From a virus, in the IMG/VR virus record IMGVR_UViG_3300044530_001115, positions 1 through 64,000 of that record: a DNA stretch of 64,000 bases; one strand, 5' to 3'. The position numbers and the translations under genes were made by a program. Position 1 is the stretch's first letter. Every line of letters starts with the position of its first letter. Of this stretch, positions 1 through 37,173 are shown piece after piece. A model generated the notes under the pieces. It saw only the letters and a list, made by a program, of their open reading frames with translations. It was not told where the DNA came from and ran no database searches.

Positions 1-253
<253 letters not shown>

Positions 254-275
254 GTAAAATGTAAAAGTTATTTTA

Positions 276-20313: not shown

Positions 20314-20781
20314 TTATTTTTTAAGATTTTTGTCTAATATTTTATAAATGGTTAAAACCATATCTAAATCTGATTTTGTAAAAGTTTTTTTGGTGTTAAA
20401 TAGGTCTGTAAAAAAACTATTAATAGAGTTTTTAACTTTATCTTCAACTTGAAGATAAAATATTTCACTAAAGAATGAATAAAAATAATCGAAATGGTCA
20501 CCTCTCTTATTGAAGTTAATATTTTCTTTACCAAAATTATCTATAACCTTCATCCAACACCATTCAAAGTGTTTTAAATTATCATCATCCGTTAATTTAA
20601 TTTTAGTTTCGGTAGACACATCATCTTGACCTAAATAAGTATCGTAGATTAAAATATATAATGTATGGCAGAAATCAGAATATAATTCCATTTTTTCAGA
20701 AATTATATTATTCATCTTAAACCAAATATCAATATCTTCAGGTTTTAAGGGTTTCGTTATGTAGTTAAAAAAATTCTCCAT
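20314..20781 (-). CDS. Helical protein of unknown function whose start lies in a terminator hairpin
   Basis: 155 residues, soluble, acidic-basic mixed and mostly helical, with aromatic-rich segments (HFDYFYSFFSEIFYL). No family recognised. Its ATG (20779-20781) lies in the 3' arm of the hairpin 20774-20801, and its second to fifth codons make up the T-run, so transcription reaching this gene must read through a terminator, or translation could be blocked by the stem. The 82 bases between this gene and the histone gene hold only an A+T-rich imperfect hairpin. Confidence 0.78.
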   Translation of the reverse strand: MENFFNYITKPLKPEDIDIWFKMNNIISEKMELYSDFCHTLYILIYDTYLGQDDVSTETKIKLTDDDNLKHFEWCWMKVIDNFGKENINFNKRGDHFDYFYSFFSEIFYLQVEDKVKNSINSFFTDLFNTKKTFTKSDLDMVLTIYKILDKNLKK

Positions 20782-20801
20782 AGATGTTTGTCTATGGAGA
20801 A
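20767..20801 (-). terminator. Intrinsic terminator overlapping a start codon
   Basis: On the minus strand TTCTCCATAGA, loop CAAACA, TCTATGGAGAA, then TTTTTTT: an 11-bp perfect stem with a 7-base T-run. The ATG of 20314-20781 is within the 3' arm. It is the terminator for 20830-22140 and may act as an attenuator for the next gene. Confidence 0.8.
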
Positions 20802-20829
20802 AATATAATTGATATAATTTGTTTGTAAA

Positions 20830-22140
20830 TTATTGAGTTTTTTGATTGTAACCGATTAAAGATTTCATTCTATCAAACTCCTCATTAATTTGTTTTGTTT
20901 TTTTATCGTTAACCGATTCTAATTTAGCCATAATATCACTTCCTTTATCTTCACCTGATTTATCATTGATAACCGGTTGAGGTGCTTTGTTATACGCTTT
21001 TCTTTTAAGTTTACCTAATAAATTATCTTTTCTAATTTTATTACGTTTTTTATTAACATCAGATTCACCAGTATTTGCCCAATCAGGGTTGTTACCTGTT
21101 TTTGAAGAACCTTCTATGTTATTAGTTACCCACTCTTCGTTAGGTTCAATACCATCATAATCTAAATTCTCTAAAGCCGCTGCAGTAAAGTTATCAATAT
21201 AATCTTCCACCGCTCCTGACGGAACATATGCCTTTTTACTCATTTTAGCTAATTCCCCATTTCCTTTAGGAAAAATTTTTGGATTTGTATCATATTCAGC
21301 TTTAGAACCATCTTTCAAATAATCTTTCATTTTTTGAGCAACAGCTTTAAGGTTATCTTCATTTTCTTTACCGTCTTTTTTATGAACTTGTTTGTATTTT
21401 TCTAATCCCGGAGCACTTCCAATAGTTTTTAAGTTATTTTTTTCAGCCGGGTCTTTAACATTTGTGGTTTTTTGTTCTAAAACAATTCTTTCAATTAAAT
21501 TAACTAACTCTCTTTCATTCATTCTAACTGATTCTTTAACCGGGTATTTTTTACCATCAACTTCAAAAGAATCTTTACCACTTTTTTTAGCATCTGATAA
21601 AGCTCCTGAAAACGCATTACCTTCTTCAGTTTCTTGTTCCTCCATACCATGTCTATCTTTAAATTTCATGCTATTTCCTTTTTTCTCTTTACGTAAAAGT
21701 TTAAAGTCCTCCGAATCAATTTTATTGTTTTTGTTTTTATCTAATTTTCTTTGACGACCTTTCAATCCCTCATTCATTGAGTCACCACAAAATTGTTTTG
21801 TTCTATCATCTTCCGGACCAAATTTATCCATATGATATTTACAAGATTCTTCATTTTCTATATTTGTCTCTGTTTCAATATCTTCTTCTTCTTGAACGTA
21901 ATCAAACTCATCTTTGTTATTAATGTCTTCAACATCATAAATACCTTCTTCCATCATATTATACCCACATTCCATACATTCACCTTCATTCATATTACTA
22001 CCACACTGTTCACAAACTTCAGAGTTTTCTTTAATAGATGATTTAATTTTAGATACTAAAGTTTCTGCCTTTTCACCTAAATTTTCTTTCAATACTTTAG
22101 AAATCATTTTTTCTAAATAAGTTATAGTTAATTTTCTCAT
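20830..22140 (-). CDS. Candidate virion protein with zinc ribbon and EF-hand-like motif
   Basis: 436 residues, lysine and glutamate rich. The N-terminus (KLTITYLEKMISKVLKEN, residues 3-20) is the shared leader, and a second copy (VRMNERELVNLIERIVLEQ) occurs internally near residue 220. A zinc-ribbon-like CEQCGSNMNEGECMECGYNM lies at about 41-60. DKNKNNKIDSEDFKLL (about 134-149) is a good calcium-binding EF-hand or dockerin-type loop. Much of the rest is low-complexity and probably disordered. Two leader copies could mean it is cleaved twice by a prohead protease; a packaged internal protein is my best inference. Confidence 0.82.
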   Translation of the reverse strand: MRKLTITYLEKMISKVLKENLGEKAETLVSKIKSSIKENSEVCEQCGSNMNEGECMECGYNMMEEGIYDVEDINNKDEFDYVQEEEDIETETNIENEESCKYHMDKFGPEDDRTKQFCGDSMNEGLKGRQRKLDKNKNNKIDSEDFKLLRKEKKGNSMKFKDRHGMEEQETEEGNAFSGALSDAKKSGKDSFEVDGKKYPVKESVRMNERELVNLIERIVLEQKTTNVKDPAEKNNLKTIGSAPGLEKYKQVHKKDGKENEDNLKAVAQKMKDYLKDGSKAEYDTNPKIFPKGNGELAKMSKKAYVPSGAVEDYIDNFTAAALENLDYDGIEPNEEWVTNNIEGSSKTGNNPDWANTGESDVNKKRNKIRKDNLLGKLKRKAYNKAPQPVINDKSGEDKGSDIMAKLESVNDKKTKQINEEFDRMKSLIGYNQKTQ

Positions 22141-23018: not shown

Positions 23019-23450
23019 CTATTTTGTTATAATAAGATAAGTTGATGCAAGAATTCCTGCGAAAGTACCAACTTTCCATAAGAAAGTTTTTGTTCTTTGT
23101 CCTTTTAATTCTTTATGTAAACTATTAGTTAATTCTTCAGAAACTTTTAATTGTTCGTCCTTTTTACCTAACATAAAGTTATTGTTCTTATCTTTTTCTT
23201 CAAGAAGAATTATGTGAGAATCTTTTTCTTTTTCCCTTTCTTCAGTTTTAATAAGTTTTTCTTTAGTTAATTTTAACTCAACCTCACACCCATCACCTTT
23301 TAGAATATCCTTTATCGCTAATTTAGCAACCGGAACTTTTAATCTAACTTTTGTAGTGTCACTACTAATTGTTGGTTTTGTTGTATCTGTTTGTGAAAAA
23401 CTGCTCAAGCTCGTTAGCAGTAAGAGTGTCAACACTATTAACTTTCTCAT
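23019..23450 (-). CDS. Exported coiled-coil protein with C-terminal anchor, spanin-like partner
   Basis: 143 residues. A Sec signal peptide occupies residues 1-20 (MRKLIVLTLLLLTSLSSFSQ, typical of Bacteroidota with cleavage at or near SFSQ). A charged coiled coil runs from about 58 to 118, then a hydrophobic segment at 124-140. It starts inside 23365-23724 in another frame (86-base overlap), the layout of Rz/Rz1-type nested spanin genes. It lacks a lipobox cysteine, so it is not a classical outer-membrane lipoprotein; a unimolecular or non-canonical spanin is possible. Confidence 0.75.
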   Translation of the reverse strand: MRKLIVLTLLLLTSLSSFSQTDTTKPTISSDTTKVRLKVPVAKLAIKDILKGDGCEVELKLTKEKLIKTEEREKEKDSHIILLEEKDKNNNFMLGKKDEQLKVSEELTNSLHKELKGQRTKTFLWKVGTFAGILASTYLIITK

Positions 23451-23724
23451 CTGTTTGTTTTTTAATTATTGTTATGTTATTATCTATGTGATGAATTTCT
23501 TTTGTAATTTTAACCACATTACCTTTTACTGAATCAATCTTAATATCAATTCCCTCATTAACCGCTTTAGCCGAATCAATCTCAGTTTGAATTGATTCTA
23601 TCTTTTCTTTATATGATTTAACATCTGTTTTGATTCCATTGGTTGTAAATATGTTCCAAGCCGCCAATACAATAACGATGATTAATAATATATTTTGTTT
23701 GTTGTTTGTTACAATATCTTTCAT
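23365..23724 (-). CDS. Inner-membrane anchored coiled coil, i-spanin-like
   Basis: 119 residues: short cytosolic N-terminus, hydrophobic segment at about 11-25, then a periplasmic coiled coil (about 30-105). This is the topology of Rz-type i-spanins that help fuse the membranes at lysis. It overlaps the exported partner 23019-23450 by 86 bases and the upstream gene 23724-24326 by one base. It lies two genes after the amidase, supporting a lysis cassette. Spanin sequences diverge quickly, so the assignment is by topology and context. Confidence 0.75.
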   Translation of the reverse strand: MKDIVTNNKQNILLIIVIVLAAWNIFTTNGIKTDVKSYKEKIESIQTEIDSAKAVNEGIDIKIDSVKGNVVKITKEIHHIDNNITIIKKQTDEKVNSVDTLTANELEQFFTNRYNKTNN

Positions 23725-24326
23725 TACTCTTCAGTATTACTTGTTTGTTTTCTTGACGCTAAAACTTTTGCCCATTTTGATTTAAATTTTTCATAGAAAA
23801 CTTTTAATTTATTAATCATTTCTAAAAACTCATCATCAGTTTTTAACATCTCACCGTTTATGTAAACACCATTTTCTTCACCAATTGTAAAAAAGAAATC
23901 TAAATCAAAATCAATAATTCTACCTGACCACTCCACATTATTTGGATATACGTTTAATTTATTGAAATCTACTAAATCTGAAACTTGTTCAACAAATTCA
24001 TTCATTGTTTCTTGGAAAGCGATTTTTTCATCTGTAGTTAAATCTAAATCATTATTATCTTTACCGTGTAATACAATAATACCTCCAACAACTCGATATC
24101 CTTGTGATTTATCTTCTTGATTATTTGTGTCGTCTTCAATCTTATCCTCAACGTCTTTTGCAACGTTTAGTTTTGAAATAACATCATTATCAGACAAACC
24201 TACTTGTTCGTTAATAATACCGTGTTTTTGTCGAATACGATTAATATCCTCATTAATTGTACTATTTGATAACATCTTTCTAGATGCCTCAACTAATCTT
24301 TTTATTTCATCATGTGAATTGCTCAT
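23724..24326 (-). CDS. Protein with I-x-E-Q leader between amidase and spanin-like genes
   Basis: 200 residues, acidic. The first 41 residues form helices ending HGIINEQ, with a possible prohead-protease site after E40. The rest contains GYRVVGGIIVLHGKDN and strands around WSGRIIDFDLDFFFTIGEENG. No family recognised. If the leader is real, this is a packaged or virion protein embedded in the lysis region. It overlaps the amidase gene by 17 bases. Confidence 0.78.
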   Translation of the reverse strand: MSNSHDEIKRLVEASRKMLSNSTINEDINRIRQKHGIINEQVGLSDNDVISKLNVAKDVEDKIEDDTNNQEDKSQGYRVVGGIIVLHGKDNNDLDLTTDEKIAFQETMNEFVEQVSDLVDFNKLNVYPNNVEWSGRIIDFDLDFFFTIGEENGVYINGEMLKTDDEFLEMINKLKVFYEKFKSKWAKVLASRKQTSNTEE

Positions 24327-24909
24327 GCTCTATTTTTTTTAAAAATTCTTCAAAATTAAATGCCGGGCTAACATCTGTATAATCAGTGTCAAAGTTACTT
24401 TTACTAACTATCCCGTCATATTTTTCTATACCATTTATTTTTGTATTATGCCCAATTACTTGGTTTTTAATTTTTATTTCTTTTAGTAACTTACTACACA
24501 AAATAGAAGTGTTTTCAACTTGAATGGATGTGTAAGGTTGCCAAAAATAATAATCTCTCCATTTTTTTTCAAACACATTACCTTTATAAATATCACCAAT
24601 CCAGTTAACGTAATGATTACTTAGCGGTTCTTTTTCTAACCACCCTAAATTTTCCAAACAAACGATGATAGAATTTCTATTTATGTTTGCTGAAGTAAAA
24701 TAATTTGAATGCTCATTATTACCTAATAATTGAAGTATTTGTCCATCTCGAGTAACGATGTAATTAGGTATTCGTTTAAATTTACCATTAAATCTGAGTT
24801 TTAATGATTGTAAATAATCCCCAACACTTCTTGAAGAGTGTGTGAGGATTATTTGATTTTTTTTCTTTTGTTTCCCACATGGTTTAAAACCATCTATTAT
24901 GTCTATCAT
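24310..24909 (-). CDS. N-acetylmuramoyl-L-alanine amidase (endolysin)
   Basis: 199 residues, one domain. IILTHSSRSVGDY (about 20-32) gives the first zinc histidine, IPNYIVTRDGQILQL the typical amidase-2 strand pair, NRNSIIVCLENLGW the middle, and VIGHNTKI (about 151-158) a second histidine. Amidase-2 enzymes cut the bond between muramic acid and the stem peptide. There is no signal peptide, so release needs a holin. Candidate small membrane proteins are at 24941-25729 and 25722-25994, and the spanin-like pair follows downstream. Confidence 0.82.
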   Translation of the reverse strand: MIDIIDGFKPCGKQKKKNQIILTHSSRSVGDYLQSLKLRFNGKFKRIPNYIVTRDGQILQLLGNNEHSNYFTSANINRNSIIVCLENLGWLEKEPLSNHYVNWIGDIYKGNVFEKKWRDYYFWQPYTSIQVENTSILCSKLLKEIKIKNQVIGHNTKINGIEKYDGIVSKSNFDTDYTDVSPAFNFEEFLKKIEHEQFT

Positions 24910-26064: not shown

Positions 26065-26865
26065 TTACATATAATCAAACAATACCGAGCAGTCATTCCT
26101 TAATTTTCTTAAGGCCTTTTCCTTTATTTGTCTAACCCGTTCTTTAGTCAGATTAAAATCACCACCAATATCTTCGAGGGTTCTCTGTGTTCCGGTTAAC
26201 CCGAAATAGTCCTCAACAATAACTTTTTCACGTTCATCTAAAACATTTAATAAAGAGATTAATTTTGCTTTTAATAAATCTTTACCATTAAATGCTTCAT
26301 CAGGCATATCAGCACCTTCATTTTTAATAATATCAACAAGAGTATCACCATCTTCATTGATATTCATATCTAAATCAATCATTGAAGGTAGATTTTGGAA
26401 CTTATCATCTAACTTACCACCATTAGATTCAATTTCTTTTTTAGCTCTATGTAAATCCTGTACCACATTAACTGGTAGTCGGATTGTACGGGCGTTGTCA
26501 TTCAACGATTGGAGGATTGATTGTTTAACCCACCACACCGCATAGGAAATAAAACGTAAATTCTTGGACCAATCAAAATTGTTGATGGCTTTCATTAAAC
26601 CTAAATTACCTTCGGCAATTAAATCAGGGAAATCCAATCCTTGATTTTGATATTGTTTTGCCACCGTAATAACAAAACGTAAATTACCTTCTAATAATTC
26701 TTTATTAATCGCCTTAATCTCATTCTCTGTTAGAGTACCCGAGGTAATCAATTTAGATAACTCACGTTCTCTTTCAGGGGTCATCACTTTAATCTTACGA
26801 ATATCTTTTAGATATAATTGAATCTCTTCTTGATTAATTGGAATACCGGAATTTTTTTCTTTCAT
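26065..26865 (-). CDS. RNA polymerase sigma-70 factor, RpoD-like
   Basis: 266 residues. Region 1.2 at about 14-42 (IQLYLKDIRKIKVMTPERE), regions 2.1-2.4 at about 62-137 with LRFVITVAKQYQNQGLDFPDLIAEGNLGL and FISYAVWWVKQSI, region 3, and region 4.2 with TLEDIGGDFNLTKERVRQIKEKALRKLR near the C-terminus. Lack of region 1.1 is normal for Bacteroidota RpoD, which this resembles closely. It would bind host core RNA polymerase and redirect it to a subset of promoters. The candidate targets are the TATTTATAA boxes or the TAnnTTTG promoters in this window. A hijacked host sigma gene is the likeliest origin. Confidence 0.93.
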   Translation of the reverse strand: MKEKNSGIPINQEEIQLYLKDIRKIKVMTPERERELSKLITSGTLTENEIKAINKELLEGNLRFVITVAKQYQNQGLDFPDLIAEGNLGLMKAINNFDWSKNLRFISYAVWWVKQSILQSLNDNARTIRLPVNVVQDLHRAKKEIESNGGKLDDKFQNLPSMIDLDMNINEDGDTLVDIIKNEGADMPDEAFNGKDLLKAKLISLLNVLDEREKVIVEDYFGLTGTQRTLEDIGGDFNLTKERVRQIKEKALRKLRNDCSVLFDYM

Positions 26866-29862: not shown

Positions 29863-29893
29863 ATTATTATTTTTTTAAAAAAATAGACAAAAA

Positions 29894-29926
29894 AATAATA
29901 CCTATCAACTGTTGATAGGTATTATT
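29894..29926 (-). terminator. Intrinsic terminator of the gp46-like gene
   Basis: A 16-bp nearly perfect stem (core AATACCTATCAAC / GTTGATAGGTATT, 29897-29909 and 29911-29923) followed on the minus strand by TTTTTTTG. It separates the recombination genes from the restriction-modification cassette. Confidence 0.88.
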
Positions 29927-29927
29927 T

Positions 29928-32297
29928 TTATTGAGAAACATAACTTATATTCTCTTCTTTTCTAATTCTTACTACATTATCCGACCAATTCGTCACTAGT
30001 GGATTATGTGTAATTACAAATATCTTCTCAAAGTATTCTTTAATCTTGGTGAAGAACTCTGATACCATCTCCAAATTATCGTTTGATATCTTTCCAAAAA
30101 CCTCATCAAAGACAACAACATTTGCTCTTGGTAATGAACATATCTTACTTAATACCGCTCTTAACGCTAGTGATGCAATTGTTCTTTCATATCCTGAACC
30201 GGAAGACATTGGTTTCTCAACTTGGGTATTGTTATCAATCATAAGGAAGTCAACCTCATTCTTGTCATTAATTTTAACCTCTAATCTGAAGTGACAACTA
30301 TCTTCTAACAATCGTTGAAGTTCACTATTAATAAGTGGCATCATTGTTTTCATTATAAGTTTAGTCACCCCATTCTTACCGAATATCTCCAAATAGATTT
30401 TGTATATTCTTTCTCTTTCAGCCTCTTCCGCTATTTTTCTAATTGTTTCCAAATTAGAACTAATTTTATCGGTTAGAGTTTTAATGGTGAACTTATTGTT
30501 TGAGATACTAGTTTCAATAGTTTTCTTCTCACCCTCAAGTTCATCAATTCTGATTCCCGCTTTAATTAATAACCCGTCAGTCTTATTGTTTTCCACAATC
30601 TTATCCTGAACTTCAGAATATCTTTCCAATTTGGTTTTCAATGAATCAATCATCAATTGGAAACGTTCAACACTTAATTCATATTTCTCTTTGATAAGTT
30701 TGTTTTTTTCATACTCATCAAACTCTTTTTTAAGATTAACAAAACCTTCTTCTTTGTTGGTTAATTCACTCATTAACCCCTCTAATTCGTCTTTATGAGT
30801 GATAAATCCGGCAAGTTCACCAATTTTTGCGTTGGTTATAGCCGCGTTCATCAGTTCAATACCACAATGTTCACATTTGATTCCACCATCAACAGAACTC
30901 TTAAGTTCTTCGATGCTTTTAATCTTTGCATTGTTCTCCGCTTGTTTGGTAATCAAGTCCTTAATCTCTTGTTTTACCTCATCGTGTTTGTCCTCGTGGT
31001 AAAATTCAGATGGTTCAATAACCTTAACCCCATCTCTATCGGAAATGGCTTTACCCTTTTGTAAATCCAATCCATTAATCTCCTCTTGAACTTTGTCCGG
31101 AGACACTAGTGTTAGTTCCTTATCAATGTTGTGTTTGGATTTTAATAATCCATCACGATACTCCTGACCCTTAACAATTCTACCTTTAACGTCTTCCAAT
31201 TGAGTATCTAACGTAAGATTAGTTTCCGTTAGGGTATCAATGGTTTCTTGATTAGTTTGGTTGTCAGTTTTAAGTTGTTCCGAGTTATAGATGTTCGATA
31301 ACATCCCTTTTGAGAAGTCACTATAAATTTCTTTGGCGGCTTCTTCCTTACGTTTAAGAAAATCTAACCCCATAAACCTTGAAAGAACTTGACCCCTCGC
31401 CGTAGGTTTGGCATCAATTAGTTCCTCCAAGTTGGTGGCAGTTGTTAGAATGGTCATTAAGAAGTCCTCTTTGGTTCCGATAGACGTTTTGATAAACGCC
31501 TCGGTCTCTCTTCGTTGTTCTCCGGTGAAGTTTTGTAAACTACCATCAGACAATCTTTTATAAAAGTCCAACTCGGTTTTAACGTTCCATTCATTTTTCT
31601 TTGATAACTTTCTCTCAATATTTCTCAATATGATGTACTCCTCACCATCGATTGTTATCTCACCTTTTACGGCAACTTTGTTTCTTTCTGTAAACCTGTT
31701 AAATATTTCCTCCGCTTTGGATGTCTTGGTTGTCTCATTAAAGAATAAGAACATCAATAAATCCACAGTCAAAACTGTCTTACCCCCAAAGTTAGGCGGG
31801 TTTGATTCCACAACCGTAATCCCATCACACTTCTCAAAATCTATCTTCTGATTCTCACCATAGGATAAAAAGTTTGAGAACTCAATGTTCTTAATATACC
31901 ATCTCTTAAATGGAGCCGCATCAGTTTGAGTTTGTAACAATTTATTATCCACAATACTATTAAGTTGGTAGATATCATCGTAGTGTTCCATATTCCCTTT
32001 TGACTCCAAGAATGAACGAACTAATTCTAATTGATAGTTCTCATCCAAGATGTTAAAGGATATGTCTACGGTATGTGTGGTGTCGTCAGCAACCTTTGTC
32101 TTTGTAATAACATTAACATTGGTTGTGTTGTACTTCTTTTGAAAGTAATGACGAACACTTTTTATTTTTTCTTGTGTAAAGTTTTCAGCATAGTCCTCCC
32201 ATACAATCTGTAGGTAAGGATTATCAAAACTTGTGATATCTAAATCTTTTATCATTATTGTGTAATTAAATTCTATGGGGGGATTGAATAAATCCAT
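29928..32297 (-). CDS. SbcC/Rad50-like recombination ATPase (T4 gp46 type)
   Basis: 789 residues. Walker A region NFGGKTVL near residue 170, long coiled coils (about 330-470 and 500-640), a zinc-hook KCEHCGIEL near residue 475, the ABC signature SSGSGYERTIASLALR and Walker B NVVVFDEVFGK near the end. With the SbcD-like gene at 34094-34891 it should form the Mre11/Rad50-type complex that resects DNA ends for recombination-dependent replication. The residue normally Gly at the start of Walker A is not Gly here (PNFGGKT). About 140 extra N-terminal residues precede the ATPase core, more than in T4 gp46. Confidence 0.92.
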   Translation of the reverse strand: MDLFNPPIEFNYTIMIKDLDITSFDNPYLQIVWEDYAENFTQEKIKSVRHYFQKKYNTTNVNVITKTKVADDTTHTVDISFNILDENYQLELVRSFLESKGNMEHYDDIYQLNSIVDNKLLQTQTDAAPFKRWYIKNIEFSNFLSYGENQKIDFEKCDGITVVESNPPNFGGKTVLTVDLLMFLFFNETTKTSKAEEIFNRFTERNKVAVKGEITIDGEEYIILRNIERKLSKKNEWNVKTELDFYKRLSDGSLQNFTGEQRRETEAFIKTSIGTKEDFLMTILTTATNLEELIDAKPTARGQVLSRFMGLDFLKRKEEAAKEIYSDFSKGMLSNIYNSEQLKTDNQTNQETIDTLTETNLTLDTQLEDVKGRIVKGQEYRDGLLKSKHNIDKELTLVSPDKVQEEINGLDLQKGKAISDRDGVKVIEPSEFYHEDKHDEVKQEIKDLITKQAENNAKIKSIEELKSSVDGGIKCEHCGIELMNAAITNAKIGELAGFITHKDELEGLMSELTNKEEGFVNLKKEFDEYEKNKLIKEKYELSVERFQLMIDSLKTKLERYSEVQDKIVENNKTDGLLIKAGIRIDELEGEKKTIETSISNNKFTIKTLTDKISSNLETIRKIAEEAERERIYKIYLEIFGKNGVTKLIMKTMMPLINSELQRLLEDSCHFRLEVKINDKNEVDFLMIDNNTQVEKPMSSGSGYERTIASLALRAVLSKICSLPRANVVVFDEVFGKISNDNLEMVSEFFTKIKEYFEKIFVITHNPLVTNWSDNVVRIRKEENISYVSQ

Positions 32298-37123: not shown

Positions 37124-37173
37124 TCTTCACAAGTTTTTCATTCCCATTATATTTATTGAGATAACCTAAAGAA

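What the first reader, a model, noticed from the sequence alone, without database searches (positions are those of the whole stretch)
20767..20801. Terminator hairpin that contains the start codon of the next gene
Seen: an 11-bp stem with a T-run in which the ATG of 20314-20781 lies in the 3' arm and codons 2-5 (Glu, Asn, Phe, Phe) form part of the stem and the T-run. Either the downstream gene is made only when the terminator is bypassed, or the hairpin hides its ribosome site. The same geometry occurs at 219-253. Together they hint at a deliberate coupling of termination and translation.
Basis: partly seen in the sequence, partly recalled or inferred. Interest (0 to 1): 0.55.

Follow-up and report, generated by a model that had tools for sequence, protein, structure and literature searches.

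The report
Terminator, promoter and start codon overlapped
In a family of very large, never-cultured bacterial viruses, one short stretch of DNA appears to stop incoming transcription, hide the next gene's start signal, and launch that gene's own message from a point that escapes both blocks.

Summary
The hairpin is real: minus strand 20801-20774, 11 bp, then seven T, with the ATG in the 3' arm and codons 2-5 as stem and T-run. It is no coincidence: 95 distinct start regions of relatives keep all nine core pairs in 92, at least 6 T of the next 8 bases in 92, and covarying pairs (34 double changes against 8.1 in shuffles, 0/500). Codons 2-5 are nearly frozen as nucleotides while codons 6-7 drift. 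Site 219-253 has the same promoter and terminator overlap, with the ATG just after the T-run. Best reading: terminator, start-codon lock and self-exempt promoter in one element of jumbo phages with probable Bacteroidota hosts. The logic resembles T4 gene e/soc/49 hairpins; new is the coupling to an intrinsic terminator whose U-tract is coding. Nothing was tested experimentally.

The parts
20824..20829 (-). -35-like element TTTACA, directly after the stop codon of the upstream gene
   Evidence: conserved; 16-17 nt spacing to the -10 in 73 of 75 distinct segments
20802..20807 (-). -10-like element TATATT (TATAAT most often in relatives)
   Evidence: at least 10 of 12 hexamer matches in 89 of 95 distinct segments
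20791..20801 (-). 5' arm of hairpin TTCTCCATAGA; predicted transcription start about 20795 lies inside it
   Evidence: start predicted from the -10, not measured
20785..20790 (-). loop CAAACA; length and sequence vary in relatives (apparent loop 3-9 nt apart from one lost stem)
20774..20784 (-). 3' arm TCTATGGAGAA containing start codon ATG (20781-20779), codon 2 and two bases of codon 3
20767..20773 (-). T7 run = last base of codon 3 plus codons 4-5 (TTT TTT, Phe-Phe); U-tract of the terminator
20314..20781 (-). downstream gene, 155-aa predicted all-helical protein with no known family
20830..22140 (-). upstream gene, 436 aa, same strand, ends 28 nt before the hairpin; follows an amidase-containing cluster
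237..265 (-). second site: TTTACA-N17-TATTAT promoter; 5' arm of the hairpin in its spacer, -10 at the top of the hairpin
219..253 (-). second site: terminator hairpin (253-224) and T-run, ATG of nucleotide-sugar epimerase gene at 218-216; predicted start about 230
26065..26865 (-). phage sigma-70-like factor (regions 1.2, 2, 4), candidate reader of the TTTACA/TATAAT promoter
   Evidence: link to this promoter is inference

Best explanation
A composite control element. (1) RNA coming from the upstream operon contains both arms and folds into a strong hairpin followed by U7, so most polymerases terminate within codons 3-6 of the next gene. (2) In any RNA that reads through, the AUG is buried in the stem, so it is poorly translated. 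(3) The gene's own promoter (TTTACA-N16-TATAAT) starts RNA inside the 5' arm; that RNA lacks the outer half of the stem, cannot form the terminator, and carries an exposed AUG after a leader of about 12-15 nt. The gene is thus isolated from upstream transcription at two levels and expressed only when its own promoter is used, probably by polymerase carrying the phage's own sigma factor. Shown: conserved, covarying stem; frozen T-run codons; conserved promoter-like hexamers at fixed spacing. Inferred: termination, start-codon occlusion, the start site, the sigma factor.
For: Stem: 95 distinct segments, 92 with all nine core pairs; 40-row alignment, 99.1% of cells paired, 34 double changes against 8.1 (sd 4.1) shuffled (0/500), 37-55% paired when slid; RNAalifold finds the same 11 pairs unprompted, and the third base of codon 2 uses all four Watson-Crick pairs with its 5'-arm partner. 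Codon freezing: Glu2 is GAG in 62 of 63 (23.6% GAG elsewhere in the gene), AAT 80/80, Phe codons TTT 77/77 and 76/76 (73-74% elsewhere), while codons 6 and 7 are about 50/50. Stem and T-run go together: all 89 strong-stem segments have >=6 T of 8 after the stem; the three with fewer are all among the six weak stems. Promoter: 89 of 95 at >=10/12; 70 of 75 in the earlier set against 350 or so of 5000 simulated (305+40+4); spacing held in L063 where extra bases follow the stop codon. Fold: -15.1 full, -1.8 from the predicted start. Second site repeats the overlap. SD-like sites are rare in these phages (2% and 4% of genes), and A at -3 is 62-63% elsewhere but 10 of 95 here, so pairing seems to override the usual context. 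Same gene order in relatives.
Against: No transcript data. The promoter motif is not clearly enriched genome-wide (10 forward against 7 reverse of 180 upstream regions of one 318-kb relative; pattern counts only modestly above reversed controls; a small post-hoc excess at 19-21 nt from ATG). Six of 95 segments match the hexamers at fewer than 10 of 12 places. Six of 95 segments have weak stems while the gene is kept, three of them with a 12/12 promoter. If transcription started 1 nt earlier more stem would remain (-5.0 kcal/mol). Sequences are related, so counts are not independent; only 6 tree changes underlie the 3'-side variation at the codon-2 pair.
Confidence: 0.68

Rival explanations
1. 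Start-codon lock only, as in T4 gene e: the hairpin blocks translation of long incoming RNAs, and the T-run is just Phe codons, without real termination.
For: T4 genes e, soc, 49 and I-TevI have such inhibitory structures, and gene e has promoters over the 5' strand (PMC3014915, section 29). A few relatives keep a strong stem with an interrupted T-run (L079, L085, L283, L306).
Against: The T-run is outside the stem yet frozen (TTT 77/77 and 76/76); all 89 strong stems have >=6 T of 8 after them, including the four named; T-run loss occurs only with weak stems.
Confidence: 0.15
2. Plain operon terminator that happens to overlap the next gene because phage genomes are compact; no regulatory coupling.
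For: Terminator-like hairpins are common here: 92 candidates in the 318-kb relative, 13 in the window. It sits 28 nt after the stop codon, a normal place.
Against: Of the 92 candidates in the relative only this one and one of doubtful ORF support (61652-61627) have a start inside; the overlap is kept in 92 of 95 segments, apparently at the price of a poor -3 base, with the promoter locked to the arm.
Confidence: 0.12
3. A DNA palindrome bound by a dimeric protein (operator), not an RNA hairpin.
For: An inverted repeat next to a promoter is typical of operators, and covariation preserves symmetry either way.
Against: Arm spacing varies (A of ATG to its partner 7-17 nt apart from one lost stem), which would rotate half-sites; arm sequence itself changes in pairs; a conserved directional T-run follows only one arm; some pairs are G-U.
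Confidence: 0.03
4. Conditional attenuator or riboswitch in the gene's own leader.
For: A terminator just before or at a start codon is the usual expression platform.
Against: No conserved aptamer or alternative pairing seen: only about 28 nt lie between the stop codon and the hairpin, the spacer varies freely, and Rfam gives nothing credible. The promoter is predicted to start inside the hairpin.
Confidence: 0.02

Closest known systems
T4 gene e (lysozyme), soc, gene 49 and I-TevI early-RNA hairpins (PMC3014915, section 29 read in full)
   Same: Long upstream RNAs fold a helix that hides the Shine-Dalgarno site and/or AUG; for gene e, promoters immediately upstream start RNA that lacks the 5' strand and is well translated.
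   Different: Here the same hairpin is also built as an intrinsic terminator with the U-tract in coding codons; the promoter is of -35/-10 type, not T4's TATAAATA; no Shine-Dalgarno is involved; gene and phages are unrelated by any match found.
IS10/IS50 transposase protection from external promoters (recalled; not confirmed in the papers searched)
   Same: Read-through RNA folds over the start of the gene; the element's own promoter starts inside the repeat.
   Different: Transposon ends, not a phage operon boundary; no coding U-tract terminator recalled.
Ordinary intrinsic terminators
   Same: GC-containing stem, short loop, run of T; 28 nt after an upstream stop codon.
   Different: The next gene's start codon and first codons are the 3' arm and T-run, and the next promoter abuts and starts in the 5' arm.
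Recycling termination and reinitiation at nearby promoters (PMC6978380, PMC11347151; passages read)
   Same: A terminator lying next to a promoter in the same direction.
   Different: The passages report in vitro work and genome distances for separate terminators and promoters; here they overlap. Relevance is speculation.

Membership tests
Intrinsic (Rho-independent) terminator | GC-containing stem of several pairs with short loop followed by a T-run | tested here: met
   11 pairs, 4 GC, loop 6, T7; full fold -15.1 kcal/mol
Intrinsic (Rho-independent) terminator | Stem and T-run conserved together | tested here: met
   89 of 89 strong stems have >=6 T of 8 after them; 3 of 6 weak stems do not
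Intrinsic (Rho-independent) terminator | RNA 3' ends at the T-run | not testable with these tools
   no transcriptome available
T4 gene e-type start-site-locking hairpin | AUG and/or Shine-Dalgarno in a conserved helix | tested here: met
   AUG in the 3' arm; all nine core pairs in 92 of 95 segments
T4 gene e-type start-site-locking hairpin | Own promoter over the 5' strand so own RNA lacks it | tested here: inconclusive
   promoter hexamers >=10/12 in 89 of 95, predicted start in the 5' arm; start not measured
T4 gene e-type start-site-locking hairpin | T4-type late promoter TATAAATA at this place | tested here: not met
   TTTACA-N16-TATAAT type instead; so it works like, but is not filed as, the T4 element
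T4 gene e-type start-site-locking hairpin | Translation reduced in long RNAs | not testable with these tools
   needs reporters
Riboswitch or known Rfam RNA | Match to a described RNA family | tested here: not met
   only a below-threshold hit to a Tetrahymena snoRNA, 25.9 bits against a gathering score of 80, on the other strand
Bacteroidota host promoter (TTTG / TAnnTTTG; consensus recalled) | -7 element TAnnTTTG upstream of this gene | tested here: not met
   consensus at this site is TATAAT then TTCTCC; TATCTTTG sites do occur elsewhere in relative G001

The most novel reading that the evidence does not exclude
A relay: polymerase that terminates at the coding T-run after transcribing the upstream amidase-containing cluster stays on the DNA, takes up the phage sigma factor and restarts on the promoter overlapping the terminator, so upstream transcription is converted into the downstream gene's own, translatable mRNA. 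The overlap of terminator and promoter would then be the working part, used at two or more loci of these jumbo phages.
Probability: 0.08. Interest if true: 0.82.

Novelty: new variant of a known kind. Interest (0 to 1): 0.58.

Why it matters
It shows one stretch of about 65 nt doing four jobs (terminator, start-codon lock, promoter, first five codons), held by selection across many uncultured jumbo phages. It extends the T4 gene e logic to phages that lack Shine-Dalgarno sites and probably infect Bacteroidota, and adds termination to it. It gives a compact, self-exempting insulator that can be tested directly in a laboratory strain, and a warning that conserved N-terminal residues (Met-Glu-Asn-Phe-Phe) may reflect RNA rather than protein constraint.

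Tried and rejected
Chance overlap: rejected by covariation and codon freezing. Wrong start codon: rejected, because the residues after codon 5 are conserved as protein with synonymous drift, and the next in-frame Met of the window (codon 23) is not shared by most relatives. DNA operator: disfavoured by varying arm spacing. Transcriptional slippage on T7 to make a second product: in the window either frame shift meets a stop within a few codons, and the following codon varies in relatives (read), so rejected. Riboswitch/known RNA: nothing in Rfam. Known function of the protein: no PHROGs family, no Pfam match above cut-off, no PDB fold match at E <= 0.001, one uncharacterised uncultured-phage protein in BFVD; no match in 50,697 phage records and no confirmed relative in the genome-contig collection. 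A genome-wide class of this promoter: not established (weak post-hoc hint). My hand-made pair string was off by one and was not used; the RNAalifold structure was used. In one search the -10 was chosen badly for some rows; re-chose it together with the -35. Literature searches for a start codon inside a terminator or a promoter overlapping one gave no matching case (listings only, apart from the papers named); the IS10 parallel could not be confirmed in print.

Full report
WHAT IS THERE. On the minus strand, 20801-20774 is an 11-bp hairpin (TTCTCCATAGA, 6-nt loop, TCTATGGAGAA) followed by seven T. The ATG of the 155-aa ORF 20314-20781 is in the 3' arm; GAG and the first two bases of AAT complete the arm; the last base of AAT and TTT TTT are the T-run. 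With >=10 bp, >=4 GC pairs and >=7 T of 8 the window has 3 such hairpins; 20 dinucleotide shuffles gave 2 in all. In the 318-kb relative G001, a scan for >=8-bp terminators found 92, two with a start inside: this one and one at 61652-61627 whose ORF is doubtful.

RELATIVES. Searches of the viral contigs with the protein and three alignments returned 23 (all), 80 (of 190), 80 (of 220) and 80 (of 394) loci; the last two used only interior peptide patterns, so they are blind to the hairpin. Dropping one locus without an ATG (L366), 243 rows, the window included, collapse to 95 distinct segments. Nine core pairs are complete in 92 of 95, and the longest T stretch is >=6 in 87 of 95. Of the 78 distinct interior-anchored segments, 75 have nine of nine pairs, 70 have T>=6, and 72 have >=10/12 promoter matches.

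COVARIATION. On 40 divergent rows (my choice out of the 95), RNAalifold returned the same 11-pair stem, with four pairs changed on both sides in at least one row. Pair counting gives 99.1% of cells paired, 34 double changes against 8.1 shuffled (0/500), and 37-55% paired when slid. The third base of codon 2 pairs with its partner as C-G, A-U, G-C and U-A. On a tree from the rest of the gene, the 3' side of that pair changed 6 times, the 5' side 9 and the pair 9, so the events are few but real.

CODON FREEZING. Among 80 distinct ORFs of the earlier set, Glu2 is GAG in 62 of 63 although GAG is 23.6% of Glu codons elsewhere in the gene. Codon 3 is AAT 80/80 (73% elsewhere). Codons 4 and 5, when Phe, are TTT 77/77 and 76/76 (74% elsewhere). 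Codons 6 and 7 are split nearly evenly between synonyms. Selection on nucleotides stops where the T-run stops.

TERMINATOR RATHER THAN LOCK ALONE. The T-run is not paired, so a pure AUG lock would not freeze it. Of 95 segments, 89 have a stem of -11.5 kcal/mol or better and all 89 have >=6 T in the next 8 bases. Of six weak stems (L207, L215, L241, L330, L331, L374), three also have fewer than 6 T. L079, L085, L283 and L306 have interrupted T-runs but strong stems; they still pass the 6-of-8 count.

THE PROMOTER. Between the stop codon of the upstream gene and the hairpin, two hexamers are conserved: TTTACA and TATAAT (TATATT in the window), with 16 nt between them in 66 of 75 and 17 in 7. At least 10 of 12 positions match in 89 of 95; in the earlier set 70 of 75, against 349 of 5000 simulated sequences of like composition. 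L063 has extra bases after the stop codon but the same -35/-10/arm spacing. The -10 ends at the outer edge of the 5' arm, so the usual start, 7 nt on, is A20795 inside the arm. RNA from there keeps a five-pair remnant at about -1.8 kcal/mol (-5.0 if it starts one nt earlier, -0.6 one nt later) against -15.1 for the full element. Predicted leaders are mostly 12-15 nt. The start site is a prediction.

SECOND SITE. At 219-253 the ATG of a nucleotide-sugar epimerase gene follows directly on the T-run. Twenty relatives of its N-terminus were found. TTTACA (or TTGACA) and TATTAT, TATAAT or TATTTT at 17-nt spacing straddle the 5' arm in 18 of 20; L381 has 16 nt and TAATTT; L399, a distant homologue, lacks the arrangement. 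By strict criteria (fold -11 kcal/mol or better and >=7 T before ATG) L380, L381, L382 with its duplicate, L383, L386 and the nine loci like L387 keep the terminator, 15 of 20; L385, L392 and the two loci like L397 are weaker. L387 carries a compensatory change (CTTTTG/CAAAAG for CCTTTG/CAAAGG). The predicted leader is 10-12 nt with no fold left. So the shared feature of the two sites is a promoter start inside or past the 5' arm, not the ATG in the arm.

CONTEXT. Gene order around the hairpin is stable: among 52 distinct loci from the first two searches, the upstream gene and the 58-aa and 148-aa downstream genes were found in 52, and the Amidase_2 gene in 50, the other two (L019, L062) having short flanks. 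The upstream cluster holds the amidase and small membrane-anchored proteins (spanin-like by my reading of their sequences), so it is plausibly a lysis cluster. The phage encodes a sigma-70-like factor with regions 1.2, 2 and 4. A Bacteroidota host is likely: G001 has TATCTTTG sites upstream of genes, which fit the TAnnTTTG promoter type of this phylum (recalled; the term occurs in PMC6847099 by the counts, but the passage describing it was not read), and SD-like sequences are rare (2% and 4% of genes). In F. johnsoniae, structure near the start codon lowers initiation and A at -3 helps (PMC6847099, passages); here A at -3 is found in 10 of 95 against 62-63% of genes.

AGAINST. The promoter type is not clearly enriched across G001 (10 forward against 7 reverse of 180), and the 21 exact hits outside this locus that I inspected (17 in G002, G004 and G005, 4 in G001) looked mostly intragenic and none carried such a hairpin and start. 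A post-hoc excess at 19-21 nt from ATG (9 hits over 503 genes of G001 and window together, three gene pairs being orthologues) is only a hint. Nothing is known about the 155-aa protein.

KNOWN OR NEW. The T4 gene e, soc, 49 and I-TevI hairpins follow the same logic for translation (PMC3014915, section 29 read in full). What I did not find in print (listings) is the fusion with an intrinsic terminator whose U-tract is coding. I therefore call it a new variant of a known kind. The relay reading rests on in vitro work showing restart at nearby promoters after intrinsic termination (passages) and is untested here.

Noticed in passing
37126-37153 (+): TTCACA-N16-TATATT with an ATG 20 nt downstream (37174), nearly identical in the 318-kb relative G001 upstream of the same gene; a likely further promoter of this type at the start of a long rightward gene block.
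   Followed up: partly
2824-2750 (-): Terminator hairpin whose T-run runs into a Bacteroidota-type promoter (TTTG ... TATCTTTG); similar junctions recur in relative G001.
   Followed up: no
L287-L302 (relative G001): TATTTATA/TATAAATA-like words are over-represented upstream of genes (TATTTATA in 48 of 180 regions forward, 34 reverse); possibly a second phage promoter class.
   Followed up: no
29891-29929: Perfect 18-bp inverted repeat (39 nt) at the end of the SbcC-like gene, with T-rich flanks on both sides.
   Followed up: no
23019-24909 (-): Amidase_2 gene followed by two small membrane-anchored proteins that look spanin-like; probable lysis cluster upstream of the element.
   Followed up: partly
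L330, L331, L374: A group with N-terminus MDNFLNYITKNL in which stem and T-run have decayed (-10.2, -6.9, -6.2 kcal/mol) while the promoter stays 12/12: a natural experiment for separating the parts.
   Followed up: partly
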